Assembly (NCBI GenBank): GCA_030673965.1
Contig: JAUTCN010000014.1
Span: 1-53,614, forward strand
DNA: 53,614 nucleotides
Direction of reading: 5' to 3'
From: Fusobacterium sp. JB019
Lineage (GTDB): Bacteria; Fusobacteriota; Fusobacteriia; Fusobacteriales; Fusobacteriaceae
Shown here: in pieces, positions 1-14,736 of the stretch
How the letters are laid out: each line of letters starts with the position of its first letter
Position numbering within the stretch: the stretch's first letter is position 1
Position numbers and translations under genes: made by a program
The notes under the pieces: model-generated
What the model was told of the DNA's origin: nothing
Databases searched by the model: none
The model's input: only the letters and a program-made list of their open reading frames with translations

Positions 1-2002
1 ATAATAATGTTCCTTTATTTGTAATATTTTTACTAGCATCAATATCTAAAGATTTATCTCCAGCAACAATAGTTCCATCATTATTAACGTTTTCTGTATT
101 TATTGTTACTCCATTACCTTTTATTGATCCTTCATTTGAAACCAATTCAGAGGAAGTTATATTTGTCTCATCTGTAGAAATAATTCTACCTGAAGATTTA
201 TTAATTAAGCTTCCTTTTCCTGAAGTTTTCCCTGAAATATTAGTAGTTTCTGAATACGTTGATCCTTCATTTGTAAAACTATCTGAATTTATATTCAATC
301 TAGTTGCTGCATAAATACTTCCTTTGTTATCTAAAGAAGTTGATGAAATCAAGGCTTCTCTAGAAGATTGAATTTTACCTGTCTCTGAATTTAATACAGA
401 GTTAGAATTAATTATATTTAACTCTGATCCACTTAAAATTTTTCCACTATTTAATATATCGTTATAACCATCTATATTTACTAATACATTGGAAGATAAT
501 TCCCCTGTCTCCATATTAGTTAGGGAACCATTTCCTGAAATATTTAATTTATTTACGCCTAAAATTTTACCTGCATTGTCAATATTTTTAGATGCTATAT
601 TTAATATATCTCTTCCTGTAATAGCTTTTTTATTATAAATTTTCCCTGCGTCTATATCTACATTTGCAGCTATTATTGTTCCTTCATTGTATATTTGATT
701 ATTATCTGTATAAGAAATTGTTCCATCTTCTAACTTAGACTTTACATTAATGTCTAATGTTTTTCCTGAAACTATTAAAGAGTCTTCTCCATATACATTA
801 ACTTTTTCTGTATTTATTTCTACATTTTGAACCCTATTTTGGTCTTCATCCATAGATATTAACGTACTTCCATTGCTAACTTCTAACTCTTTACCTGAAA
901 TTTTAACATTATCTTTACCCTTAGCATAGCCATCATTTCCTTTAAATGATACTTTTCCTGTAGCATTAACTTTTAGATCTTTTTCAGCTAAAATTAATCC
1001 CTTATTACCATCTTGAGTAAAGTCACCTTCAACATTAACTTTTATATCTCCAACTCTAGTAGCTGCATTTTTTAATAATACATTACCTTTAGAGTCCACT
1101 GTTAAATCATCTATTGTAGCAACCATTTGACCTTTACTATTTACTCCAACTCCTTTATCAGTAGCAATTAAAGTAATTTTTCCAGCAGACATTGCTCCCA
1201 ATTCACTAGCATCTATTCCATACTCATAATTACTAGTTGCACCTTCTTCACTTGTGTATTCCCCAGTTTCATAGTTAAAAGTATTGCTTCCTGTTAATAT
1301 TTTTATTTCCTTAGTTGATCTATTTTCAGTTCTTCCACTATGAAGTGCTCCACCTATTTTTGAAGCTTTTGAAATTATATTAAAATAGTCAACTCTTGCT
1401 ATATTAATAGAACCTCCACTTGCTAACTCAACTTGCCCATCAGTTATCTTGAAAACTATTCCACCATTTTCATTAATTTCATCAACTAATTTACCTGTAG
1501 TCATAGTTACTTTAGATGTATTTAAAAATCCACCATTACTTAAATATATTCCGTTAGGATTAGCTAATATGAACTCTGCTTCTTTTCCAGCTATTTCTAT
1601 AAAACCTTCTATTTCAGATCTTGTTAAACCTGTAACTTCAGATAAAATTGTTTTAGCTTCTTTTCCAGCTTCAATATTAGGATTTCCATAAATTAATCCA
1701 GCTAAATCTGTTAACGTCATTTGAGATGAATTGTTTAAGATCATTCCATTTTCATCAACATTAAACTTTAAAAATTTATTATGAGATAAACCTCTCTCAT
1801 TAGGTGTAACTATATCCACTTGATCAATATTATTCTTTGTTTTTCTTATTATAGCCTGATGTTTACTTAATGCATCTTCATCAACAATAACACCAGCTGC
1901 ATAAGAAACAACATCCAGTGGACTAACTAAATTATAAATAGCCAAACTTATTAAACCACCTATAATTTTTTTACTCTTACTATCCAAATCTTTTTTCTTC
2001 AT
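1..2002 (-). CDS. TpsA-type filamentous haemagglutinin/adhesin, N-terminal part (gene continues beyond left edge)
   Basis: About 667 codons are open from the ATG at 2002 to the window edge with no stop. The start has a GAGGTGG ribosome site a few bases upstream. The N-terminus is basic then hydrophobic (MKKKDLDSKSKKIIGG...), like a long signal peptide. It is followed by a TPS-type secretion domain with the hallmark NPNGI (read near 1545-1575), then many short repeats of the form N-x-G-x-I / L-x-I-x-(S/G), as in right-handed beta-helix exoproteins. Family knowledge: TpsA proteins cross the outer membrane through a cognate TpsB. The TpsB gene lies immediately upstream at 2175-3902, so pairing is likely. 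tpsA has its own upstream element (2074-2136) behind the tpsB terminator. C-terminal features cannot be judged. Confidence 0.88.
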   Translation of the reverse strand, partial: MKKKDLDSKSKKIIGGLISLAIYNLVSPLDVVSYAAGVIVDEDALSKHQAIIRKTKNNIDQVDIVTPNERGLSHNKFLKFNVDENGMILNNSSQMTLTDLAGLIYGNPNIEAGKEAKTILSEVTGLTRSEIEGFIEIAGKEAEFILANPNGIYLSNGGFLNTSKVTMTTGKLVDEINENGGIVFKITDGQVELASGGSINIARVDYFNIISKASKIGGALHSGRTENRSTKEIKILTGSNTFNYETGEYTSEEGATSNYEYGIDASELGAMSAGKITLIATDKGVGVNSKGQMVATIDDLTVDSKGNVLLKNAATRVGDIKVNVEGDFTQDGNKGLILAEKDLKVNATGKVSFKGNDGYAKGKDNVKISGKELEVSNGSTLISMDEDQNRVQNVEINTEKVNVYGEDSLIVSGKTLDINVKSKLEDGTISYTDNNQIYNEGTIIAANVDIDAGKIYNKKAITGRDILNIASKNIDNAGKILGVNKLNISGNGSLTNMETGELSSNVLVNIDGYNDILNSGKILSGSELNIINSNSVLNSETGKIQSSREALISSTSLDNKGSIYAATRLNINSDSFTNEGSTYSETTNISGKTSGKGSLINKSSGRIISTDETNITSSELVSNEGSIKGNGVTINTENVNNDGTIVAGDKSLDIDASKNITNKGTLL

Positions 2003-2073
2003 ATGACCACCTCATACCTTTATTAAAAACACATAAAAATTATTATTTATACTTTATTTTCATTCTTACACAT

Positions 2074-2136
2074 ATTATTACAAATGATTCAATATATGTA
2101 TATATTACTTAATTAAGCTAACCTTTCATAAGTAAA
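2074..2136 (-). promoter_or_regulatory. Conserved 63-bp upstream element of tpsA
   Basis: Read on the minus strand the element has three blocks: TTTACTTATGAAAGGTT, 13 nt, AATATATACAT, 11 nt, TTTGTAATAAT. The same blocks with identical spacing occur at 9450-9512 before the lipoprotein/autotransporter operon. It ends 71 nt before the tpsA start and begins inside the T-run of the tpsB terminator. It is probably a promoter or activator site. The exact -35/-10 boxes are not evident. Confidence 0.6.
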
Positions 2137-2164
2137 AAAAACTTCTCCAATTTAATTGGAGAAG
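2133..2164 (-). terminator. Terminator after tpsB
   Basis: A perfect 10-bp stem (CTTCTCCAAT / ATTGGAGAAG) with a 3-nt loop is followed on the minus strand by eight T residues. It lies about 10 bp after the tpsB stop and separates tpsB from tpsA. Confidence 0.9.
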
Positions 2165-2174
2165 TATTTTTATA

Positions 2175-3902
2175 TTAAAAACTCATACTTCCTGTTAAAT
2201 ATATTCTACCTTTTTTATCTACTTCTAAGTAATCTGGATAGTAAATTGGTATTCCACAACTTACACTTATATTAGCAAAACTAATATCTTTATATAATCC
2301 AAAAGCTACTGAAGCAATTTCTTCGTTTGATAAATATTTTGGATTATTTTTATTTGAACTATTTTTTACAAATCCATAATCTATTCCTACATAAAATTTA
2401 GTTTGATTTAATTGTCTAGCTATAGGATTTTTAGATTCTGTTAAGAAAGTATAATTCAATTGATTTTTTACATATATACCTTTTTCTCCAGTTACTCCAT
2501 CTTTAAATCCTCTTACTGTTACATCATCTCCTATTGACATCTTATCTCCACTATATAAAATATCTGGAGAATACTGTGAATCAAATGTAAATTCATAAGC
2601 TAACCCAAGATTCATGAAAGTAAATGGTTTATAATATCTTGTATAAAATTTAAACTTGTCATATTGACGTTTAGCTTGACTATTATACTTATCTTTATCA
2701 GCTCCTAAACTTCCTAAACCTCTCACATAGCTAAGTTTATTAAAAATACTTCCACCTGCTAAAATACCACTATAAGATAAATCTATTTGCTCACTAGCTG
2801 ATTTATAACTACTTGTCTCAACAAAACTTTTTTCTATAAATGTTTTTGAATCTTTAAAGGCAAAAGTCGATCCTAATTTTATTTTTCCTTTACTTCCATC
2901 ATATAAAGTTCTATTCAATTTAAATTTAGCACTAGAACTTTTAGATTCATTTAAAGAACTCGTTATTTTACCTGGTATAGTATTTCTTGTTTGTGAGTAA
3001 TTATATGTAACCCCTGTTTCCCACCAACCAATAGGAAGAGTATAATCTGCAAAAACACTTCTACTATATCTTACAGAATCATCATCTAATGTAGAAGAAC
3101 CTTGAACAAATAACGTGTCACTAGCTCCTAATACGTTTCCTGTAGACATTCCTACTTTAACACTATTTTTACCTGTGCCTTCACTACCTAAATTATCAAA
3201 ATCCACATTTACGCTACCTAATTTAGTTTCATGTACATCTCCAATTATAATAGTTTGACCTATTTTTGTACCTGGATTTAATTTAAACTTACCTTGAGTA
3301 TTTGGAGCAGAGCTTAAATTAGCTTCTGAATACTCTATCTTTTTAAGATTTACAGTATCTCCTTCTTTAAAGACTAAATTTAAATTTTCCTTTAATTTAG
3401 ATTTATTTTTACTTCTATCAATTATTAACACTTTTTCTATTTTTCCCTCAAAAATCTTTAATTTTAATTCTCCTTGAGAAATATTTTGATTTATAGGTAA
3501 AGTCACACGAGCAGCTACATAACCTTTTTTAATATAACTATTTGTTATATCTTTAACTAAATTATGTATATCTCCCATACCTAAATCTTTCTTTGCATAT
3601 TTTTTTACTATCTTTATTTTCTCTTTAACACTTAACTTATTAGCATTTATAAGAGTTATTTGTTTAATGTAAAATTTTCTTCCAGACTGAAATTGTACAT
3701 CTTCTTTTTCTTTAACTTTTTCCTTTTCTTGTAACTCTTTTTTTAAAATATTTTTTATTCTTTTTTCTTCAAGCCGTTTTTCTTGCAGTTGCATTTCTCT
3801 ATCACTATTATTTTGAGGTGAAGAGATAGAGTACGATACATTTTCTAATGCAAATGTCAGTCCAACTAATAAAAAAACCTTACTTAATGTCTTTTTTTTC
3901 AT
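2175..3902 (-). CDS. TpsB/FhaC-family two-partner secretion outer-membrane transporter
   Basis: The protein has 575 aa. A signal peptide (residues 1-25) is followed by a lysine/glutamate-rich helical stretch (about 35-70) like the plug helix/linker of FhaC. A POTRA_2 segment covers about 75-165 (IKQITLINAN... to a strand ending KVLIID). A ShlB-type 16-stranded barrel covers the rest, with the conserved VRGF motif (DDVTVRGFKDG) and a terminal GSMSF strand that fits BAM recognition. Length matches the family (about 550-590 aa). The start is preceded by GGGGAG. It sits 13 bp after the OmpA lipoprotein gene, so it is the last gene of the operon. Expected role: export of the TpsA encoded just downstream. 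Confidence 0.94.
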   Translation of the reverse strand: MKKKTLSKVFLLVGLTFALENVSYSISSPQNNSDREMQLQEKRLEEKRIKNILKKELQEKEKVKEKEDVQFQSGRKFYIKQITLINANKLSVKEKIKIVKKYAKKDLGMGDIHNLVKDITNSYIKKGYVAARVTLPINQNISQGELKLKIFEGKIEKVLIIDRSKNKSKLKENLNLVFKEGDTVNLKKIEYSEANLSSAPNTQGKFKLNPGTKIGQTIIIGDVHETKLGSVNVDFDNLGSEGTGKNSVKVGMSTGNVLGASDTLFVQGSSTLDDDSVRYSRSVFADYTLPIGWWETGVTYNYSQTRNTIPGKITSSLNESKSSSAKFKLNRTLYDGSKGKIKLGSTFAFKDSKTFIEKSFVETSSYKSASEQIDLSYSGILAGGSIFNKLSYVRGLGSLGADKDKYNSQAKRQYDKFKFYTRYYKPFTFMNLGLAYEFTFDSQYSPDILYSGDKMSIGDDVTVRGFKDGVTGEKGIYVKNQLNYTFLTESKNPIARQLNQTKFYVGIDYGFVKNSSNKNNPKYLSNEEIASVAFGLYKDISFANISVSCGIPIYYPDYLEVDKKGRIYLTGSMSF

Positions 3903-3915
3903 AAACTACTCCCCT

Positions 3916-4371
3916 CTAACTATCAGCTTCATCAAAAAATAATTCCACTCTTCTATTTTTTCTTCTATTTTCTGCAGTGTCATTAGGAACCACTGGATCA
4001 CTTTCTCCCCTAGGAATAATTAAAAATTGAATTTTATTATCTTTAGGTAGTAAAGTTTTTACTACATTAGCTATTGTGTTAGCTCTTTTTCTTGATAAAA
4101 TTACATTATATTCATCTGATCCATAGTTATCTGTATGACCTACGACCTTCAAAATTCCTTTTTTATCTTTTATTCTTTCTATCAACACCCTATTTATTTC
4201 TTCAACAATAAAAGTAGATTCTGCAAGAGTACTTTTATCAAAATCAAAAGTACCGCTTGTATCATCTATAACCATTAAAGGAATACTATAAACTGCAACT
4301 CTCACTCTTTCTTGAAAACTACTACAAGATACTAATAGAAATGCACATAATATTACAAATGTTTTTTTCAT
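3916..4371 (-). CDS. OmpA-family peptidoglycan-binding lipoprotein
   Basis: The protein has 151 aa. A short lipoprotein signal has lipobox LVSC with Cys16. The OmpA C-terminal domain fills about residues 40-148: FDFDKSTL, GHTDNYGSDEYN, LSRKRANTIANVV and NRRKNRRVELFF, which carry the D and R residues that bind diaminopimelate. There is no beta-barrel, so it resembles a Pal-like tether. It lies between the unknown small gene and tpsB with gaps of 11 and 13 bp, in an operon otherwise devoted to type V secretion. It may anchor the export apparatus or the envelope to peptidoglycan (inference). Confidence 0.9.
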   Translation of the reverse strand: MKKTFVILCAFLLVSCSSFQERVRVAVYSIPLMVIDDTSGTFDFDKSTLAESTFIVEEINRVLIERIKDKKGILKVVGHTDNYGSDEYNVILSRKRANTIANVVKTLLPKDNKIQFLIIPRGESDPVVPNDTAENRRKNRRVELFFDEADS

Positions 4372-4382
4372 ATTTTTCTCCT

Positions 4383-5051
4383 TTAAAATGCTATACTTCC
4401 TCTTAAAAATATCTCTTCTTCATCATTATTTTGAATTTCTTCCTTTAATATTCCTAAATCTAAAATATTATATTCTTCAATCTTACTCTCAGGAATTAAA
4501 TAAGTAATTATTTTTTCTAATTTTTTAGCACTTATTTCTCCTGAACCATAAAAAATCTTTTTATAAAATTTTTCATATTTCATAATTCCTGTATCTTCGA
4601 TTTTTAATTTTTGTTTTTCTTTCTTAGAATAATATTTATAACTTGTTTTTAAAGTTTTTATAGGAACATACATTATCATATCAATATGATCAAGACTTAT
4701 TAAATATGATTTCTCATTTGTACTTACTATTCTTTCTTTGTCATCATATTTTGTAGTTATCTCGTATATTTTTTCATTTATAGCTTCTTCATCAATTATA
4801 AATTTATCTTTATTGTCAAAAACATTTCTGTATGTATATAATTTTTTATTAACTTTATTTTTATCTTTGGTAATTACTAAATAAAAATTTCTAACTATTG
4901 GATTTCCATTTATTTCATCAGTTACCTCATAAGTATATATTTTTTTATTAAGTTTAGTGGAATTTGACAAAACCTTTATTCTTATATTAGAAAATGCAGA
5001 TGTTGACAGTATAACCATTAAAATCATAATTATATATTTTTTAAAATTCAT
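4383..5051 (-). CDS. Small exported protein of unknown function within the adhesin operon
   Basis: It has 222 aa from the ATG at 5051 (MNFKKYIIM...). A GTG at 5060 could add three residues, but the ATG is better placed after GGAAGGGTAGGTG. The start lies inside the last codons of the upstream autotransporter gene (11-bp overlap), which suggests translational coupling. A clear signal peptide ends near SAFS. The mature part is charged and beta-rich, without cysteines or a domain I recognise. The final residues FLRGSIAF resemble a terminal outer-membrane strand and parallel the GSMSF end of the neighbouring TpsB, but the protein is too short and polar to be an obvious barrel. Confidence 0.8.
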   Translation of the reverse strand: MNFKKYIIMILMVILSTSAFSNIRIKVLSNSTKLNKKIYTYEVTDEINGNPIVRNFYLVITKDKNKVNKKLYTYRNVFDNKDKFIIDEEAINEKIYEITTKYDDKERIVSTNEKSYLISLDHIDMIMYVPIKTLKTSYKYYSKKEKQKLKIEDTGIMKYEKFYKKIFYGSGEISAKKLEKIITYLIPESKIEEYNILDLGILKEEIQNNDEEEIFLRGSIAF

Positions 5052-8000
5052 AAGTAACACCTACCCTTCCTAAGGCTTGCCAGAAATTTTCTCCCATTTC
5101 AGCAGAAATTAGTCCATAAACAGAAAGTCTATCATTTATATCTATTTCTTGTTTCAAATCAACACTTAATATAAATCTTGGTAATTTAACTGAATAAATA
5201 TCATATTTTGCTTTTTCATTAAAAATATAATAACCTCTTCTATTATCTATCATCCCATTAAAGAAATATTCTAAATTAACTCCTAATTCTGTAAATCTAT
5301 TTTGATTCCTATGCTCCCATTTAGTTCCTAATTTAACATTTGGAATATTTTCTCTTAAAGATGGTAAGTTCATTATATAGTATTCGTTTCCTGTTTCCTT
5401 ATATCCCTCTATATAATTAAATAAATAACCCAAACTAGCGTGAGTTCTTATTACACTATCTCTAGAAACTCTGTATTTATATTCACCTACTAGTCCTATA
5501 TTAAATCCATAAGATTCATAATTAGCATTAACAATATATTCTTTTCCAGTGATACCTCTTTCTAATTTATGTTTATTTATAGAAGTTCCTACATACCCTC
5601 CAATTTTAAAATCTTCTATTTGATAAGCTGCATTAAAATTTAGTATATAAGAATTTAATTTTTCACTACTATTATATTTATATTTAACCTTGCTCTCTAA
5701 ACCTGTAAATCCTAAACCTAAAATTATATTTTCTCTTATCTTATAATAACTATCTAATTTTCCTCCATAAGTATCATAGAAGAAATATCCTTTTTTATCT
5801 CCAGCTTTATAATTTCCAGATTTAACAATTGGTCCCGCATCTATATAATAAGGAATCTCTGCATTGTGAATTTTTTCTATAACTTTAAACTTATCTTTTA
5901 GATTTGTGGCCTCTGATAAGTATTTTTTATCTAAGAAGTTATAAGAGTAATTCCATACACCATTTTTATAAGAATCTGGTAAATTATCTCCCCCAGTTTT
6001 TCTTTTTAAAACCATACTTAAATCAGTTTTATCTGAAGATAATCTATAAGTTCCTTCCCAACCTGAAACATAGTTCAATACTTCAATATTATCTTCTGTT
6101 ACCTTTATTTCTTCATTTGTATAAATGTTAGGGACAACAATTTCATCAACATCATCAGCTACAACATAAACACTGTCTAGTGGCTTATATGATAATTTAC
6201 CTTGAATATCTAAACTATTTGCATGAACTGTACTTGTATATTTATTCCCATCAACATTATTTCTATTAACTTCTACTTCCATTGTAAGAGTTTTGTCTGT
6301 GGCAATTTCTAAATTTCCAGTATATGAACTAGTATCTTCATGCCCTGTAGCAAGGGTATTTCTAATTGGAGACTTTAATGTAGTGTCTTTCTTTATAGCA
6401 AATTCTCCACTAGTAATATCCATATGAGAAAATCCTTTTAAAGAATAATCTATATTATGAGTTGTCGAACTTGAAAAGTCATCTTTACCATAAAATCTTC
6501 CAACTCCACCTGAAGAAACAACTGTTCCTATAACTGTTGACTTTTCATCCATATATAAATTACTATCCTCTATACCCATATATATAGCAACACCGTCAGT
6601 AGCTGTATTAGAAACGTTTCCATTATTTATTACAGTTGCATCTTTTACTGCTTGAATACCATATGATTCTTTTGTTTCAACATTAATATTTCCATCATTT
6701 TGTAAAGTTGTTCCATCTAAACCAACTAATCCAGAAGAATCTACACCTTTTATTGTTATGTTTCCTGTATTAATTGCTTTTTTTATAGAGTTTCTAGCAA
6801 AAGCTCCCATTGATCCCTTTGCATCTGAATCTATAAGAACATCTCCAAAAACTTTAACCTCTTTATTTCCTACTGAAGATACATATAAATCTGTTCTTCC
6901 TGAAGTGAAATCTCCAGCATTAACATCAAAGGCTATTATTCCCTCACCTTTAATTTTTATACCACCTGTATTTAAAACACTTATATTTTCATTTTCATAG
7001 TAAACACCTATTTGATTTTTTCCACTTAATGTTATTTCCCCTGTGTTTGATATTGATTTTCCATTAGGGTTATAAATAGCTACACCATTAGTATCATTCA
7101 TTTTTATTGTTCCACTATTTATAACTTGAGCTCCATTTTTTGAATGAACTGCAAAGTTTTGCTGTCCACCTTGAATATCTATATTTCCTTGATTTTCAAC
7201 AATACCTGTATTTGGAGTTACTACTCCTGAACTATTTGTGTTGTCTTCTACATAAATTATTTTGTTTTGAATTCCATTTACAGCTACAACATCTCCTCTA
7301 TTTATACCTCTTGTAATAGTTCCTGTAACTTTAAATGCTCCTGAATCTCTTGATCCATCTTTTATTAATATTCTTCCAACACTCTCAACTAATGAACTTT
7401 TCTCTTCATCTGTTGCAAATGCCCAGTTATTAATTCCATGAATTATCACATCTCCTGTATTTTGTAACTGACCTGGATTAAGATTATAATACTTTATACC
7501 GGTACCTTCATTTCCTTCAATAGTAACTGTTCCACTATTATGAAGTCCCTCTATATTTATTCCAACAATACCAATACCTTGGTTTCCTGTTATTTTTATA
7601 TTACCTGTATTTATTACTGAACCTGCAATTTTAGTTCCAACTACAACTTTATTCTCACTAGCTAGACCATAATTTATATTTCCTGTTAACTCAATATTTC
7701 CATGGTTTTCAACTTGGCCACCTTTAGAAGATAATATTCCTCTTAAAGAACTTCCAGTTCCTATAATTCTTCCTGTAGCTGTATTTATAGAAGTTGTTTT
7801 ATTTGCAGTTCTAGTTACTCCTATTTCTTCTGGACCATTCATTCCTGTTAAAGTATTTCCTATTAAATTTATTGTTCCACTATTTTTTTGAACTCCGTCA
7901 ATACCTTCATTATGCAATATTTCCATTCCTGAATTTTTAGAATATCCATTAACATTTATAATCCCTTTATTTTCTGAGGTTCCACCTTTTAAAGTCATAC

Positions 8001-8502
8001 CAGATGCTAAAATAGAACTATCCGATATATTAATTACCCCTGTAGTATCATTTATCATAGTTACACCACTACCAGTATTCCCTCCATGTCCTATCATACC
8101 TATAACTTCTTTACCTATAATTTCTATTTCACCTTTATTTGTTATAGTTGCTGTATTTGAAGCATTTGGATCTGTAGGTTCAGAGGAATAACTTGAATTT
8201 ATTCCTGTTCCACCTTCTATAGAATCTATAATTATTTTTTTATTCTCATTATTTATTATTGTTGCATCTATACCTCTAATACCTGTTAAGTTAGCATTGT
8301 TTGTAGGGTCATTTCCGTTTACTTTTATTTCAGCATCATTAATTAATGTATCTCCTGCTCCCCCTTCCAAAGCTTCTCTTTCTGCTTTGGAAGGGTTATT
8401 TGTATTATTTACTTCTATGTTTACTGATTGTATTTTATCTGTAGAGTATGCTAAATTACTTAAAATAAATATTCCAATACATATTCTTTTCCATCTTTCC
8501 AT
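5041..8502 (-). CDS. Type Va autotransporter adhesin
   Basis: The protein has 1153 aa. A signal peptide (MERWKRICIGIFILSNLAYS) precedes a long passenger (about 25-800) made of roughly 20-residue beta-helix-like repeats of the type N-x-G-x-I-x-(I/V)-x-G. The final 260-280 residues are an autotransporter barrel with alternating aromatic strands, ending GRVGVTYEF with the usual terminal Phe. No protease triad was noticed, so an adhesin or structural surface role is more likely than enzymatic. It begins 28 bp after the chaperone-like lipoprotein gene and overlaps the next gene. It is a monomeric autotransporter embedded in an operon that also encodes a TpsB. Confidence 0.92.
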   Translation of the reverse strand: MERWKRICIGIFILSNLAYSTDKIQSVNIEVNNTNNPSKAEREALEGGAGDTLINDAEIKVNGNDPTNNANLTGIRGIDATIINNENKKIIIDSIEGGTGINSSYSSEPTDPNASNTATITNKGEIEIIGKEVIGMIGHGGNTGSGVTMINDTTGVINISDSSILASGMTLKGGTSENKGIINVNGYSKNSGMEILHNEGIDGVQKNSGTINLIGNTLTGMNGPEEIGVTRTANKTTSINTATGRIIGTGSSLRGILSSKGGQVENHGNIELTGNINYGLASENKVVVGTKIAGSVINTGNIKITGNQGIGIVGINIEGLHNSGTVTIEGNEGTGIKYYNLNPGQLQNTGDVIIHGINNWAFATDEEKSSLVESVGRILIKDGSRDSGAFKVTGTITRGINRGDVVAVNGIQNKIIYVEDNTNSSGVVTPNTGIVENQGNIDIQGGQQNFAVHSKNGAQVINSGTIKMNDTNGVAIYNPNGKSISNTGEITLSGKNQIGVYYENENISVLNTGGIKIKGEGIIAFDVNAGDFTSGRTDLYVSSVGNKEVKVFGDVLIDSDAKGSMGAFARNSIKKAINTGNITIKGVDSSGLVGLDGTTLQNDGNINVETKESYGIQAVKDATVINNGNVSNTATDGVAIYMGIEDSNLYMDEKSTVIGTVVSSGGVGRFYGKDDFSSSTTHNIDYSLKGFSHMDITSGEFAIKKDTTLKSPIRNTLATGHEDTSSYTGNLEIATDKTLTMEVEVNRNNVDGNKYTSTVHANSLDIQGKLSYKPLDSVYVVADDVDEIVVPNIYTNEEIKVTEDNIEVLNYVSGWEGTYRLSSDKTDLSMVLKRKTGGDNLPDSYKNGVWNYSYNFLDKKYLSEATNLKDKFKVIEKIHNAEIPYYIDAGPIVKSGNYKAGDKKGYFFYDTYGGKLDSYYKIRENIILGLGFTGLESKVKYKYNSSEKLNSYILNFNAAYQIEDFKIGGYVGTSINKHKLERGITGKEYIVNANYESYGFNIGLVGEYKYRVSRDSVIRTHASLGYLFNYIEGYKETGNEYYIMNLPSLRENIPNVKLGTKWEHRNQNRFTELGVNLEYFFNGMIDNRRGYYIFNEKAKYDIYSVKLPRFILSVDLKQEIDINDRLSVYGLISAEMGENFWQALGRVGVTYEF

Positions 8503-8530
8503 CCCGCACTCCTTTTCACATCAAACACAT

Positions 8531-9388
8531 TTATTTTTTAGAGTTCTCCGCTAAATATCCTTCTACAATCTTGTCTATATCGTATTTCTCATTTATTTTT
8601 TTTAGGACATTTGTCACTTCTGCTTTAACTTTATTTTCATAAATTAAATTTTCTATAGCTTGATGAACTTCTTCTAATTTTTTACCTTCTAAATCTTTTT
8701 TATTATTTTCGTATACTTCCTTTATTTCTTCCTCTGTTACTTTAACATTTTTCTTTGCTTCAGTTAAAATATAGTAATCATTTACTTTTCTTCTTTTTAA
8801 TACAGTCATTTCCTCTTTTTGCTTTTTAGATTTGAAGTTTTCATTTGCTTCTTTGTATATAGCTTTTGAAAGTTCAATATCCAATTCTTTTCTTTGTTTC
8901 TCTATTTCTTCTTTGCTTAATCCTTCTCCTATCTTATATTTATCTTTTATAATAAGGATTTCTTTTGAAAGTTGATCTTTTAATTTAGCTCTTCCTATTA
9001 AATTTTCTATAGCATCGCTCACTTCTTCTAATTTCTTCCCATTTAAATCTTTTTTATTTGCATCGTATATTTCTTTTATTTCTTCTTTTGTTACTTTTAC
9101 TTTTTCTCCAGCTTTAGATAAAATATAGTAATCATTGACTACTCCTCTTTCTAAAGCTTCTAATTTTTCTTTTTCTTCTTTATTATCTTTAACTGATTTA
9201 AAAGCTTCTTTATAGCTAGCTTTACTTAGTAATATTTCTAGAATTTTCTTCTTATTATCCCCTGCAACTTTAAGTTCTTCCTTTGTTAATTTCATACTCT
9301 CCTCCTTAGTACCACCGTTTATCCCGCATCCTAGTAACATTAATAAACTTAAACTAGTTAAAACTTTTTTAAAATTAATTTTTTTCAC
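8531..9388 (-). CDS. Lipoprotein with two SurA-N-like chaperone repeats and no PPIase domain
   Basis: The protein has 285 aa. The lipobox LLGC places the lipidated Cys at 21. The mature part is almost all helix and very rich in Lys/Glu. It contains two clearly related halves. Each has V-N-D-Y-Y-I-L, then V-T-(K/E)-E-E-I-K-E-(I/V)-Y, then KKLEEV..AIENLI, around residues 83-155 and 187-260. This pattern resembles the N-terminal chaperone region of SurA/PrsA-type foldases, whose parvulin domain is absent here. First gene of the operon, directly before the autotransporter. Inference: a dedicated periplasmic holding chaperone for the exported passengers. Family assignment is by pattern only; a plain helical lipoprotein remains possible. 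Confidence 0.72.
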   Translation of the reverse strand: MKKINFKKVLTSLSLLMLLGCGINGGTKEESMKLTKEELKVAGDNKKKILEILLSKASYKEAFKSVKDNKEEKEKLEALERGVVNDYYILSKAGEKVKVTKEEIKEIYDANKKDLNGKKLEEVSDAIENLIGRAKLKDQLSKEILIIKDKYKIGEGLSKEEIEKQRKELDIELSKAIYKEANENFKSKKQKEEMTVLKRRKVNDYYILTEAKKNVKVTEEEIKEVYENNKKDLEGKKLEEVHQAIENLIYENKVKAEVTNVLKKINEKYDIDKIVEGYLAENSKK

Positions 9389-9449
9389 AGTCCCACTCCT
9401 TTCAATCTAAAATATAACTCCCTTATTATTAACTACATATATTAAGTTA

Positions 9450-9512
9450 ATTATTACAAAAATACATATAAATGTATATATTTTGTAATTAATAAAACCT
9501 TTCGTAAGTAAA
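9450..9512 (-). promoter_or_regulatory. Conserved 63-bp upstream element of the lipoprotein/autotransporter operon
   Basis: On the minus strand it reads TTTACTTACGAAAGGTT, 13 nt, AATATATACAT, 11 nt, TTTGTAATAAT. This matches the tpsA element (2074-2136) in 16 of 17, 11 of 11 and 11 of 11 positions with identical spacing. It ends 61 nt before the lipoprotein start, almost the same distance as at tpsA. It lies in the intergenic region shared with the divergent histidine kinase. Confidence 0.6.
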
Positions 9513-9548
9513 ATAAATAAACAACCCTTTATTAAATTTTTTTAAATA

Positions 9549-9600: not shown

Positions 9601-11190
9601 ATGAAATTTTCAGAAAAATTATTTATAAAACAATTTAAGACTTTAAATTTAATTTCTTTAATACTAATAATGTTTATTTCTGCTTTCATCACTTATAATT
9701 TAACTATATTAAATTTAAATAGAAAAAAATCAGATGAAATCAAAACTATTGCTTTTTTACTTTCAAAAAATTCTTTAGTAGTAGAAACTCTTAAAAGTAA
9801 AAAAAATAGTAAGTTATTAAATGATTATTTAGACCATATAATTATCTATAACCCTAAAATTGATGTTATTACTTTAAATGACACTAATGGAGTAAGGTTT
9901 TATCACATTAATAAAAATAAAATAGGTACTAAAACTAACTTTGATTTTGAAAAAATATTAAAAAGAAAAGATAATTCCATTATTAATAATTTTAAAGATG
10001 AGTTAGGTCTTCAAAAAATTGCATTTAATAAAATATATTCTAAAAATGATGATTTTATTGGATTTATTTCTGTTTCCGCATTAAAAGAAAATGCTTTATT
10101 TTCTTTTAAAGAATTAGCTTTAACATATGGTTTACTTAGTCTTTGTATTTTAATATTTGGAACTTTAATCTTAAATTTAAAATTAAAATTAATAAAAAAA
10201 TTCTTATTAGGATATAATCCTAGTGATTTTAAAGAAAATTTCTTAATTCGAAACAATGTTTTAGATTCTATTGATGAAGGTATTATTTCAACTAACTTAA
10301 AGGGTGAGATTACTTTTTTAAATAAAACTGCAAAAAATTTATTAGATTATAATCGAACCTCATATAAAAAAAATATTTATACTTTATTCCCAGAAGCAAA
10401 AATTTCTAAAATACTTGAAACTGGAAAACCAGAAATAAATAATGAAATCTATCTTAAACAAAAATATATGCTAATCACTAAATTACCTGTTATGGAAAAT
10501 AATAAAATATCTGGAGTTATTTTACTTATTAAAAATAAAACAGAAATGATTTCATTAGCAGAAGATTTAACTGGTTCTAATCATCTTGTAAAAGCTTTAA
10601 GAGCAAATACTCATGAATTTAAAAACAAAATGCATGTTATCCTTGGTTTACTAGAAATTAAAGATATAGATGCTGCAATAAACTATATTTCTTCCATTAG
10701 TAGTTCTACTAATAACTTTGGATTTATTTTAAAAGTAATACAAAACAAAATTATTGCCGCTCTTATTTATGGAAAATTTAACTATGCTAAAGAATGTAAT
10801 ATAAATTTAACTTTAAATAAAAAAAGTTTTTTGCCAAATAATAATGATTACATAAACAACCAAGATTTAGTTACAATAATTGGTAATCTTTTAGAAAATT
10901 CTATTGATTCAATTAATCAAAATAAAAATTCTGATGATAAAGAAATAAATTTATTTATCTCTAGTACAAATAAAGCTTTTATTATCACTGTAGATGATAC
11001 TGGAATTGGAATTCCTGATAAAAATCTAAAAAAGATATTTCAAAGAGGATTCTCTACTAAGGGAAATAATAGAGGAGTTGGTCTAGATTTAATTAAAAAT
11101 ATAGTTGACAAAAAAAATGGAATGATTAACATTGACTCTGAGATTGATGTTGGTACATCTATAACAATTATTCTTAAAAAAAATAAATGA
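9601..11190 (+). CDS. DcuS/CitA-family sensor histidine kinase
   Basis: The protein has 529 aa. TM1 is about 16-37, a periplasmic sensor follows, and TM2 is about 172-194. A cytoplasmic PAS (about 215-320, LDSIDEGIISTNLKGEITFLN) is followed by the SPOB-type H-box with His338 in ANTHEFKNKMHVILGLLE. The HATPase has N-box NLLENSIDSI (about 429-438), G1 DDTGIGIP (about 465-472) and G2 GNNRGVGLDLI. The order and H-box are typical of DcuS/CitA/MalK sensors of C4-dicarboxylates or citrate; the real ligand is unknown. It is followed at 16 bp by its response regulator and then by a GGDEF/EAL-like protein, apparently one operon. Confidence 0.93.
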   Translation: MKFSEKLFIKQFKTLNLISLILIMFISAFITYNLTILNLNRKKSDEIKTIAFLLSKNSLVVETLKSKKNSKLLNDYLDHIIIYNPKIDVITLNDTNGVRFYHINKNKIGTKTNFDFEKILKRKDNSIINNFKDELGLQKIAFNKIYSKNDDFIGFISVSALKENALFSFKELALTYGLLSLCILIFGTLILNLKLKLIKKFLLGYNPSDFKENFLIRNNVLDSIDEGIISTNLKGEITFLNKTAKNLLDYNRTSYKKNIYTLFPEAKISKILETGKPEINNEIYLKQKYMLITKLPVMENNKISGVILLIKNKTEMISLAEDLTGSNHLVKALRANTHEFKNKMHVILGLLEIKDIDAAINYISSISSSTNNFGFILKVIQNKIIAALIYGKFNYAKECNINLTLNKKSFLPNNNDYINNQDLVTIIGNLLENSIDSINQNKNSDDKEINLFISSTNKAFIITVDDTGIGIPDKNLKKIFQRGFSTKGNNRGVGLDLIKNIVDKKNGMINIDSEIDVGTSITIILKKNK

Positions 11191-11206
11191 GAGGTGGTTT
11201 AAACTT

Positions 11207-11893
11207 ATGATAAATACTATAATCGTTGAAGATGATCCTATGGTTTTAGAAATAAATAAAAACTATTTAAATTCTAATGAGAATATTAAATTAATTAAAA
11301 CTTTTTCAAATGGAGCTGACGCTTTAGAATTTTTAAAAATAAATTCTAATATACAATTAGCTTTAGTTGATTGCTTTATGCCAAAATTAGATGGTCTTTC
11401 TTTACTAAAAAAAATAAGAGAATTAGGAATTCAAACTGAAATTATCATGATTACTGCTGCAAATGATTACGAAAGTATTAATAAAGCTGTTCGTTTTGGA
11501 GCTCTTGATTACCTAGTTAAACCATTTGAATTTAATCGTTTTCAAGAGGCTATTAATAAATATTTTAAAAAATATGAAGTTCTAAAGAAAGATAAGGCCT
11601 TCGATCAAAATCAAATTGATTCTTTATTTAATAACAAAAAAACAACTTCTCCACTAAAAAATAAAATGAAATATGAAAAAGGAATTAATCCTAAAACATT
11701 AGATTTAATAATAGAATACTTTAAAAAACATTTACATAAAAAAATAACTAGTGATGAACTTTCTGCTGAACTTAATCTATCTGCAGTTACAATTAGAAGA
11801 TATTTAAATTATCTAGTTGAACATGACAGTTTAGAGTTTGAGATAGATTATGAAACTGGAGGAAGACCTTGCAATAAATATTTTCTAATTTAA
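11207..11893 (+). CDS. DcuR/CitB-family response regulator
   Basis: The protein has 228 aa. The receiver domain (1-120) has acidic pair Asp9/Asp10, phospho-acceptor Asp55 in LALVDCFMPKLDG, the MITAA Thr and the LVKPF Lys. The C-terminal winged helix (about 165-225) has KITSDELSAELNLSAVTIRRYLNYLVE and the GRPCNKY wing typical of CitB-type regulators. It is the partner of the preceding kinase. Likely targets include uptake or metabolism genes for the sensed acid; none is adjacent, apart from the third gene of its own operon. Confidence 0.93.
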   Translation: MINTIIVEDDPMVLEINKNYLNSNENIKLIKTFSNGADALEFLKINSNIQLALVDCFMPKLDGLSLLKKIRELGIQTEIIMITAANDYESINKAVRFGALDYLVKPFEFNRFQEAINKYFKKYEVLKKDKAFDQNQIDSLFNNKKTTSPLKNKMKYEKGINPKTLDLIIEYFKKHLHKKITSDELSAELNLSAVTIRRYLNYLVEHDSLEFEIDYETGGRPCNKYFLI

Positions 11894-11925
11894 TTATTAA
11901 AACAAAAGAATGGGGGGAATTTGTT

Positions 11926-14736
11926 ATGATAATAAAAAAATATTTTCTATCTTTTTTAATTTGTTTTACATTTTTAATTAATTTTAACAATACTTTTTCC
12001 CAAAAAAATATTGTTAAAGTTGGAGTTTTTGATAATCCTGTATTACACAACAATAAAACTAATGGTTATCTTGATGAATATTATAAACTTATTGAAAAAT
12101 ATACAGATTTAGAAATCGAATATGTTTACGATGATTGGGACTCTCTTACAGAAAAATTAAAAAGTAAAGAAATTGATTTGCTTGGATTTGTAACCTTCAC
12201 TGAAGAAAGAGCTAATTATTTTGATTACTCATTCTTTAATATAGGAAGAATCTCTTCTATGATTTCTACTTATAAAGATAACAATGTCACTCCTGATAAA
12301 GGATTTTCTATTTTAAAAAATAAGAAAATAGGTTGTGTTAAATCAACTATCAATGAAACCAAAATAAAAAAGATTTTAAAAGAAAATAATATTTCAAGTC
12401 AAATCATATTTTTTAAAAATAAAAGAGCTATGTTTCGTGCTTTAAAAAATAAATATTTAGATTTTGTTATAGATGATAATGTAAGACCTATATACGATTT
12501 TGAAAAGATACTCTTTAACTTTTCTTTTGAAAAAACATATTTTGTTACAAAAAAAGGAAATACTACTTTATTAAACAAAGTAAACTATGCTCTTAATAAA
12601 ATTTTTACAGAAAACCAAAATAAAATTAAAAAACTAGAATTTAAATTAAATAAAGAAGAAGAAACTTTTTTAAAAAATCTTCCAATACTAAATGTTGGGT
12701 TTATTCCTAATAATGGATATCTATCTAGAAAAAATGGAACTCATATTAAAGGAATTGATGTAGATATTCTTAATATTATATCTAAAAAATTAAATCTAAA
12801 AATAAATAAAATTCCTGTTACTAATATTGAAGAAGCTAAAGAGTTAATGAAACAAGGAAAATTAGATATTATGGGAGGAGTTAGTTATGAAAATCATTTT
12901 AATAAATCTTTCTACTTTTCTGTCCCTTATTATAATTCACGGTATTATATTATAAAAAATAAAAATATATCTAATTCAAATAAATTTTCTGCTGCTTTTT
13001 CAGAAAATTCAAAACCTGTTTTATATAATGTCTTAAATGATTATAATTTTGAAAAAATATCAAATTATAGCCATATTAATACTTTATTAAAAAACATTAA
13101 TAAAAACAATAATAATTTTACTGTTTTAGAATCTGATGTAGCTGACTATTATTTAAGAAATAATACTTATAAAAATTTAATTATAGATTTAGCTCCTTAC
13201 AGGCATTTAAAATCCCTTGCTATTTCTAAAAAATTACCTTTTTATTTTTCTACAATAATTAATAAAACTATATGTAATCTAGATGAAAATACCATTCATG
13301 AAATTGTATTAAAAAATAAAATTTATGATGATAATTTCAGCCTTTTCAATAAAATAAATATATCTAAAACACAATTATTAATTTTTTATGAACTTATTTT
13401 AGCTTTATTTTTCATTATAATATTATTATTTTATTTTAGATATAAATCTATAATCAACTTTAAAAACCTTAAAACTTTTGATGAAATTACTGAAAGTTAT
13501 AATTTTTATGAATTCGAAAAGAAAGTTCAACCTATTTTAAAAAATATTAGCACTCAGCAATACTTTTTAATTTCTTTAGAAGTTAGTAATTTAGATTATA
13601 TTTGTGAAATATATGGTTTTAAATACAAAAATATAATTTTAAAGTTAATTAATGATACTATTCAAAATAACCTAGGTTCTTCTGAGTATTTTTGTAGAAC
13701 AGATTTAAAAAGTTTTATTGGATTTGGAAAATTTAATAATACTAAATTACTAAAAGAAAGATTCACTGTTGTTGAATCTAAAATTAATAAAGAGATTAAA
13801 AATAAGCTTAATAAAGATATTGATATTATCTTTAAAAATGGAATTTTTATAATAAATGAAACTATTTCTTTAGAAAAAGCTATTTCCAATTGTTATTACA
13901 CTAAAAAATTTAATCCTGAATATTTTTCTTCAATTACATATTTTTATAAAGATAACTATAAAAAATTAAATTTATTTAATGAAAAGATCAAATATTCTGC
14001 CAAAAAAGCTTTTTTAAATAAAGAATTTAAAATCTATTATCAACCTAAAATTAATTTAGAAACTAACTCTATCATTGGAGCTGAAGTGTCAATCCTTTGG
14101 AAAAATTCTGATTTTGGAATTGTTCCAAATGAAATATTTTATCCTATTTTCATTAAAAATGGATTTATTAACGAGCTCAATCTTTATATAATGGAAGATG
14201 TTTGTAAGAAATTAGAATTTTTAAATATTAAAGATATTAAAGATATTTCTATATCTTTTGATTTTCCTATCAATTTTTTTGAAAATGAATATACTCATAG
14301 TTATTTAGAAATTTTAAACAAATATAATTTTAAACGTAGTTTGATGAAAATTGAATTATCCAATATAAAACTTGAATCTGATTTAAAAAGTTTAATAGAA
14401 AAAATAGATAGAATTAAAAGTTTAGGCTTTAATATTTATTTAGATTTATTTAAAAATGAATTTCTTTCTATTAAAAACATTGATAAATTAAATTTAAATT
14501 ACCTTAAATTTAACAAAAGTTTTCTTGATAATTTAGAAAAAAATGATTTAGAAAAAGAAATAATTAAATCAATTATTAGTTTTTCAAATATAAATAAAAT
14601 TCCTATCATTTATACTGGAATTAACAATGAAGAAAAACTTAATTATGTTAAAAATTTAAATTGTAAATATGTTCAAGGTAATTTTTTCTATCCTCCATTA
14701 AAATTTGAAGAATTTTATAAACTTATAAGAAAATAA
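11926..14736 (+). CDS. Double solute-binding-domain membrane protein with degenerate GGDEF and EAL domains
   Basis: The protein has 936 aa. A signal peptide (1-25) is followed by two SBP_bac_3-like periplasmic domains (about 27-235 and 255-475), the second with the typical GIDVDILNIISKKLNLK entry and GKLDIMGGVSY. One TM segment lies at about 482-505. A GGDEF-like domain (about 515-680) has RTDLKSF where SGGDEF should be. An EAL-like domain (about 690-935) has EVS in place of EAL, Asp for the Asn of the NLS motif, and LDLFKNE for DDFGTG. One Glu and the later Lys are kept. The missing metal ligands suggest neither cyclase nor phosphodiesterase activity, so it is probably a ligand-responsive signalling scaffold. 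It starts 32 bp after the response regulator behind a GGGGGG ribosome site, in the same operon. Confidence 0.87.
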   Translation: MIIKKYFLSFLICFTFLINFNNTFSQKNIVKVGVFDNPVLHNNKTNGYLDEYYKLIEKYTDLEIEYVYDDWDSLTEKLKSKEIDLLGFVTFTEERANYFDYSFFNIGRISSMISTYKDNNVTPDKGFSILKNKKIGCVKSTINETKIKKILKENNISSQIIFFKNKRAMFRALKNKYLDFVIDDNVRPIYDFEKILFNFSFEKTYFVTKKGNTTLLNKVNYALNKIFTENQNKIKKLEFKLNKEEETFLKNLPILNVGFIPNNGYLSRKNGTHIKGIDVDILNIISKKLNLKINKIPVTNIEEAKELMKQGKLDIMGGVSYENHFNKSFYFSVPYYNSRYYIIKNKNISNSNKFSAAFSENSKPVLYNVLNDYNFEKISNYSHINTLLKNINKNNNNFTVLESDVADYYLRNNTYKNLIIDLAPYRHLKSLAISKKLPFYFSTIINKTICNLDENTIHEIVLKNKIYDDNFSLFNKINISKTQLLIFYELILALFFIIILLFYFRYKSIINFKNLKTFDEITESYNFYEFEKKVQPILKNISTQQYFLISLEVSNLDYICEIYGFKYKNIILKLINDTIQNNLGSSEYFCRTDLKSFIGFGKFNNTKLLKERFTVVESKINKEIKNKLNKDIDIIFKNGIFIINETISLEKAISNCYYTKKFNPEYFSSITYFYKDNYKKLNLFNEKIKYSAKKAFLNKEFKIYYQPKINLETNSIIGAEVSILWKNSDFGIVPNEIFYPIFIKNGFINELNLYIMEDVCKKLEFLNIKDIKDISISFDFPINFFENEYTHSYLEILNKYNFKRSLMKIELSNIKLESDLKSLIEKIDRIKSLGFNIYLDLFKNEFLSIKNIDKLNLNYLKFNKSFLDNLEKNDLEKEIIKSIISFSNINKIPIIYTGINNEEKLNYVKNLNCKYVQGNFFYPPLKFEEFYKLIRK

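What the first reader, a model, noticed from the sequence alone, without database searches (positions are those of the whole stretch)
2002..9388. Operon combining an autotransporter, a TpsB, an OmpA lipoprotein and a chaperone-like lipoprotein
Autotransporters and two-partner systems are normally separate. Here one operon encodes a PPIase-less double SurA-N-like lipoprotein, a type Va autotransporter, an unknown exported protein, a Pal-like lipoprotein and a TpsB, with the TpsA cargo right behind under the same upstream element. This suggests a composite surface assembly with its own periplasmic chaperone and peptidoglycan anchor.
Basis: partly seen in the sequence, partly recalled or inferred. 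Interest (0 to 1): 0.62.

Follow-up and report, generated by a model that had tools for sequence, protein, structure and literature searches.

The report
Conserved fusobacterial adhesin-secretion gene cluster
A row of genes in a Fusobacterium relative encodes two kinds of surface-adhesin exporter together with a likely helper chaperone and a cell-wall anchor; the same row recurs in two other genera, so it looks like a real, so far undescribed unit for building a surface structure, although nothing here proves that the parts act together.

Summary
On the minus strand run a lipoprotein with two PPIase-less SurA-N-type domains (9388-8531), a type Va autotransporter (8502-5041), an exported protein of unknown family (P3, 5060-4383), an OmpA/Pal-like lipoprotein (4371-3916) and a TpsB (3902-2175). 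A TpsA follows (2002 to the contig end) behind a terminator; its upstream DNA resembles that of the operon. 'Neighbourhood not conserved' is ruled out: Propionigenium maris carries two collinear copies of all six genes (37-51% identity), and a Leptotrichiaceae genome carries the first five in the same order (20-30% identity) without an adjacent TpsA. The AT/P3 gene overlap is kept in all four. P3 occurs only in these loci among 96 Fusobacteriales genomes; most of the roughly 60 other TpsB loci are plain TpsB-TpsA pairs. 'Fold unrelated to SurA' is mostly ruled out: a profile of the lipoprotein family built without foldases picks out two SurA-type foldases (2.5e-9, 4.5e-7), and relatives sit beside large autotransporters in 23 of 31 loci inspected; but Foldseek gave no significant match. 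Most likely: a surface-adhesin module with its own chaperone and peptidoglycan anchor. A single physical machine remains inference. New variant of a known kind.

The parts
8531..9388 (-). Lipoprotein (LP), 285 aa, two PPIase-less SurA-N-type helical domains (residues ~32-157 and ~157-275)
   Evidence: lipobox LLGC; two domain hits; AF2 mean pLDDT 85.6, all-helical; foldase link
5041..8502 (-). Type Va autotransporter, 1153 aa: signal peptide, beta-solenoid-like passenger, C-terminal barrel ending GVTYEF
   Evidence: orthologue L024 hits PF03797 at 1.8e-20; barrel profile 3.5e-80 at residues 891-1153
4383..5060 (-). P3, exported protein of unknown family, 225 aa (probable ATG at 5051); reading frame overlaps the end of the AT gene
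   Evidence: overlap kept in all four loci; found only in these loci among 96 genomes; AF2 pLDDT 47, beta-rich, unreliable
3916..4371 (-). OmpA/Pal-like lipoprotein, 151 aa
   Evidence: PF00691 4e-14; lipobox; GHTD...KRA peptidoglycan-binding residues kept
2175..3902 (-). TpsB transporter, 575 aa
   Evidence: ShlB 6e-66, POTRA_2 4e-19; own clade with both P. maris operon TpsBs, support 100/100
2141..2165 (-). Intrinsic terminator between tpsB and tpsA (perfect 11-bp stem, also readable on the + strand)
   Evidence: z = -3.8
2..2002 (-). TpsA, N-terminal 667 aa with TPS secretion domain; gene runs off the contig
   Evidence: PF05860 4.8e-46; TIGR01901 4e-18
2039..2172 (-). Upstream element of tpsA, similar to the one upstream of the lipoprotein (core TTTTACTTATGAAAGGTT at about 2121-2138); overlaps the terminator at its 5' end
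   Evidence: score 89 against shuffle maximum 77
9422..9544 (-). Upstream element of the five-gene operon (core TTTTACTTACGAAAGGTT at about 9498-9515, next to a dyad ATACAT...ATGTAT)

Best explanation
A conserved type V surface-adhesin module. The LP, a foldase-derived chaperone without its isomerase domain and tethered by a lipid, keeps the long beta-solenoid passengers (of the autotransporter and probably of TpsA) unfolded in the periplasm. The autotransporter inserts its barrel and displays its passenger. TpsB exports the large FHA-like TpsA made from the neighbouring, similarly controlled gene. The OmpA-like lipoprotein ties the outer-membrane components to peptidoglycan so that the large surface structure can bear load. 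P3, whose gene overlaps that of the AT, is an envelope accessory of the AT barrel or of the OmpA protein. Shown: gene content, order, conservation, domain relationships, the terminator-like hairpin and the upstream element. Inferred: chaperone activity, cargo choice, anchoring and the role of P3. Not shown: that the parts form one complex.
For: Collinear six-gene copies, two of them, in P. maris and a five-gene copy in a second family (L038), diverged to 20-30% protein identity with the order intact. AT/P3 overlap in all four. P3 restricted to these loci. The window and P. maris operon TpsBs form their own clade. LP-foldase profile link. The LP family is a recurrent neighbour of autotransporters: within four genes in 23 of 31 loci from four Fusobacterium-group genomes, often with FadA. 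Peptidoglycan-binding D and R residues kept in all four OmpA proteins. Precedents: AtaA-TpgA (peptidoglycan-binding partner), SadA-SadB (lipoprotein aiding export), FHA-Par27 (foldase family) (PMC8151025).
Against: No significant fold match for LP. Some relatives of LP beside autotransporters lack a signal peptide, so the family is not purely periplasmic. TpsA is probably transcribed separately in the window and is absent next to the Leptotrichiaceae copy. The locus is patchy: the six other genomes of the window's genus lack TpsB, P3 and this AT. Foldase-family chaperones can be dispensable: FHA secretion was unaffected in a par27 mutant (PMC8151025).
Confidence: 0.5

Rival explanations
1. Co-regulated adhesin regulon: two independent surface adhesins (AT and TpsA/TpsB) with a chaperone and an envelope anchor share a promoter class because they are needed under the same conditions, without physical contact.
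For: Separate TpsA transcription unit with a similar upstream element; a second TpsA elsewhere in the genome without its own TpsB; plain TpsB-TpsA pairs stand alone in most relatives.
Against: Gene order, AT/P3 overlap and interleaving (TpsB after P3 and OmpA) are kept down to 20-30% protein identity; a mere regulon would be expected to shuffle or split.
Confidence: 0.3
2. The ancestral unit is LP-AT-P3-OmpA, an autotransporter with its accessories; a TpsB gene was added at its 3' end, perhaps more than once, and serves TpsA only.
For: The TpsB of the Leptotrichiaceae copy is the most divergent component (20%), lies apart in the tree on a very long branch (one clade weakly rejected, p-AU 0.029) and has no adjacent TpsA.
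Against: Same position and order in both families; long branches make the tree unreliable; repeated insertion at one place would itself point to a functional tie.
Confidence: 0.15
3. The lipoprotein is a signalling or regulatory lipoprotein rather than a chaperone, as proposed for FAD-I in the radD operon, where loss of the lipoprotein raised radD transcript levels.
For: FAD-I precedent (PMC7023056); a divergent histidine kinase and response regulator start 212 bp away.
Against: LP shares a domain with SurA-type foldases; the kinase/regulator pair is not next to the P. maris copies; homology of LP to FAD-I was not tested.
Confidence: 0.05

Closest known systems
Two-partner secretion (type Vb, e.g. 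FhaB/FhaC)
   Same: TpsB with POTRA and ShlB barrel; TpsA with TPS domain next to it
   Different: Embedded behind an autotransporter, P3, OmpA lipoprotein and chaperone-like lipoprotein; single TpsB with two TpsA genes in this genome
radD operon of Fusobacterium nucleatum (rapA, rapB, fad-I, radD; PMC7023056)
   Same: Small lipoproteins upstream of a large autotransporter adhesin in one operon
   Different: No TpsB, OmpA lipoprotein or P3 described there; FAD-I acts on radD transcription; homology of LP to RapB or FAD-I not tested
AtaA-TpgA and SadA-SadB (trimeric autotransporters with co-transcribed accessories; PMC8151025)
   Same: A peptidoglycan-binding protein or a lipoprotein co-encoded with an autotransporter
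   Different: Type Vc rather than Va; one accessory each; no TpsB; the TpgA model hit to the OmpA protein is far below cut-off (31.5 of 350 bits)
SurA/PpiD/PrsA foldases and Par27
   Same: LP domain is homologous to part of the foldase chaperone module
   Different: No PPIase domain; two tandem modules in the window, one in the other operon copies; lipid-anchored

Membership tests
Two-partner secretion (type Vb) | TpsB with POTRA and ShlB/FhaC barrel | tested here: met
   ShlB 6e-66, POTRA_2 4e-19
Two-partner secretion (type Vb) | TpsA with N-terminal TPS domain encoded nearby | tested here: met
   PF05860 4.8e-46; not met in the Leptotrichiaceae copy
Type Va autotransporter | C-terminal autotransporter barrel in the same chain as the passenger | tested here: met
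   PF03797 1.8e-20 in orthologue L024; barrel profile 3.5e-80 in the window protein; the window protein itself is below the Pfam threshold
SurA-type foldase | SurA_N chaperone module | tested here: inconclusive
   Profile link to SurA_N_3-bearing foldases 2.5e-9 and 4.5e-7, but no Pfam SurA_N hit on LP itself and no significant Foldseek match
SurA-type foldase | Parvulin PPIase domain | tested here: not met
   Only a sub-threshold Rotamase_2 match, 16.6 of 27 bits; all-helical model. LP may work like a SurA chaperone but is not filed as a SurA
Pal (peptidoglycan-associated lipoprotein) | Lipoprotein with OmpA-type peptidoglycan-binding domain | tested here: met
   Lipobox, PF00691 4e-14, D and R residues kept
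Pal (peptidoglycan-associated lipoprotein) | Pal equivalog score | tested here: not met
   TIGR02802 52 bits against a cut-off of 125; OmpA-like lipoprotein, not Pal

The most novel reading that the evidence does not exclude
The five conserved products form one physical outer-membrane assembly in which TpsB and the autotransporter barrel sit together on a peptidoglycan anchor with a dedicated holdase, a joint Va/Vb secretion unit in which TpsB may also serve the autotransporter or an accessory when no TpsA is adjacent, as in the Leptotrichiaceae copy.
Probability: 0.15. Interest if true: 0.75.

Novelty: new variant of a known kind. Interest (0 to 1): 0.5.

Why it matters
Type V secretion is usually treated as the simplest export route, helped by general factors (BAM, SurA, Skp, DegP). 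A gene unit that keeps an autotransporter, a TpsB, a peptidoglycan-binding lipoprotein and a foldase-derived chaperone together across two bacterial families gives a concrete place to ask whether beta-solenoid adhesins have private chaperones and anchors, and whether types Va and Vb cooperate. The LP family itself, a recurrent neighbour of fusobacterial adhesins, deserves a name and an assay.

Tried and rejected
P3: no Pfam, PHROGs, PDB-sequence or plasmid match; its AF2 model is too poor to use (pLDDT 47) and the top fold match, 3msw at E 0.038, is not trusted. Foldseek with the good LP model gave nothing significant. I considered the missing VRG[FY] motif in the Leptotrichiaceae TpsB a sign of lost function, but 25 of 61 TpsBs miss the same pattern, so it is not diagnostic. 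Similarity of the region upstream of the second TpsA (C12) to the shared element is close to shuffle level. No paper on this arrangement was found in the searches made; the library is open-access only.

Full report
What is there. The window is a whole contig (C14) of a 2.27-Mb genome that groups with Propionigenium and is therefore called Fusobacteriaceae here. Five minus-strand genes with short gaps or overlaps (28, -20, 11, 13 bp) encode LP (9388-8531), AT (8502-5041), P3 (5060-4383), OmpA lipoprotein (4371-3916) and TpsB (3902-2175). TpsA starts 172 bp further on at 2002 and runs off the contig. A perfect hairpin followed by eight T lies between TpsB and TpsA, so in the window TpsA is most likely its own transcription unit. 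The DNA upstream of LP and of TpsA is similar beyond 500 dinucleotide shuffles, which fits shared control. A divergent histidine kinase and response regulator lie 212 bp upstream of LP; they are a possible but untested regulator.

Conservation. P3 is the best tracer because it is rare. Both P. maris loci carry LP-AT-P3-OmpA-TpsB-TpsA in the same order, with 37-51% identity to the window proteins; there TpsA follows TpsB by 18-24 bp. A weak P3 hit in G091 (E 1e-4) turned out to lie between an AT (1.5e-127 to the AT profile) and an OmpA lipoprotein, with an LP-like exported protein (signal peptide, no clear lipobox) upstream and a TpsB (ShlB 1.4e-31) downstream, but no TpsA. Pairwise identities of the window proteins to this copy are 20-30%. 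The AT and P3 genes overlap in all four loci.

Background. About 60 TpsB loci were read out of the same genomes. Most are plain TpsB-TpsA pairs. Besides the four operons, only L047 (an AT-barrel/OmpA fusion, a second OmpA protein, TpsB, TpsA) and L099 (an AT next to TpsA-TpsB) have an AT barrel immediately alongside. In a tree of 61 TpsBs the window and both P. maris operon TpsBs form a clade of their own (100/100). The TpsB of the G091 operon has a very long branch; one clade with the others is weakly rejected (p-AU 0.029), so separate recruitment or fast change cannot be told apart. The six other genomes of the window's genus lack TpsB, P3 and this AT (one of them, G003, has a P3 hit of E 0.002 inside an unrelated 1592-codon frame), so the locus was gained or lost in a patchy way.

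The lipoprotein. Each ~125-residue domain belongs to a family found in 48 of 96 genomes. A profile of 19 family members, without any foldase, ranks next after its own members the two SurA-type foldases of the 993-ORF set, at 2.5e-9 and 4.5e-7; Pfam finds SurA_N_3 in both and a PPIase domain in one (the other ORF is cut by the locus end). The domain therefore looks like a foldase chaperone module with the isomerase left out. AlphaFold gives a confident all-helical model (pLDDT 85.6), yet Foldseek shows no significant relative; PrsA and SurA chains appear only among insignificant hits. In four large-genome relatives (G074-G077) the family lies within four genes of a large autotransporter in 23 of 31 loci inspected, often with a FadA gene (my count from the printed table, and no matched random-gene control was run). 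Several of those relatives have no signal peptide, so a cytoplasmic branch of the family may exist.

The other parts. The OmpA lipoprotein keeps the aspartate and arginine that in OmpA-type domains bind peptidoglycan (the role of these residues is from general knowledge). It is far below the Pal and TpgA model cut-offs. P3 has a signal sequence on inspection and no recognisable family; its model is unusable.

TpsA. The genome has one TpsB but two TpsA N-termini: the window one and one on contig C12, 68% identical; both contigs end in the same 130 bp. One TpsB may serve both. In P. maris the open frames that hold the operon TPS domains are 7320 and 6188 residues long, so the cargo can be very large.

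Mechanism. The gene content fits a surface-adhesin module with a dedicated periplasmic holdase (LP), two export routes (AT and TpsB/TpsA), a peptidoglycan tether (OmpA lipoprotein) and an AT-coupled accessory (P3). Each function is inferred from family; the conserved order and overlap argue that they work in one process. Published precedents exist for single pieces of this: TpgA and SadB with trimeric autotransporters, Par27 with FHA (PMC8151025), an accessory lipoprotein in some Burkholderia CDI loci (PMC5422565) and the radD operon (PMC7023056). I found no description of the whole set.

Verdict. Observation confirmed; interpretation partly supported; new variant of a known kind; interest 0.5.

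Noticed in passing
window 18360-21260 (-): A second autotransporter (966 aa, PF03797 1.4e-20) in the same contig, without the accessory genes.
   Followed up: no
window 9601-14736 (+): Divergent from the operon: histidine kinase with PAS and SPOB_a, response regulator, then a 936-aa protein that on reading looks like substrate-binding domains joined to a c-di-GMP-type signalling region; possible regulators of the locus.
   Followed up: partly
window 1-130 and L056 1-130: Two contigs of the genome end in the same 130 bp inside two different TpsA genes: the assembly is broken at a repeat shared by the TpsA pair.
   Followed up: partly
L178 (P. maris, TpsA C-terminus, about 4483-6600 -): The end of one P. 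maris TpsA is built of repeats rich in acidic residues and tyrosine motifs such as GEAIYGDPTVY; purpose unknown.
   Followed up: no
L179 (P. maris second operon TpsA C-terminus): Holds a HEEVH zinc-protease-like motif in the last 700 residues; not analysed.
   Followed up: no
L047 6168-10461 (+): A protein fusing an autotransporter barrel to an OmpA domain (524 aa), a second OmpA protein, TpsB and TpsA in a row: a looser analogue of the operon in another genus.
   Followed up: partly
L138-L163: Recurrent unit of a ~2,400-2,600-aa autotransporter ending NYKF, an LP-family protein (mostly no signal peptide) and a FadA-family protein.
   Followed up: partly
L051 4531-9839, L133 6918-10862, L134 5196-14000: Very large proteins (1,300-2,900 aa or more) with an OmpA domain at the C-terminus; in L051 an LP lipoprotein follows directly.
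   Followed up: no
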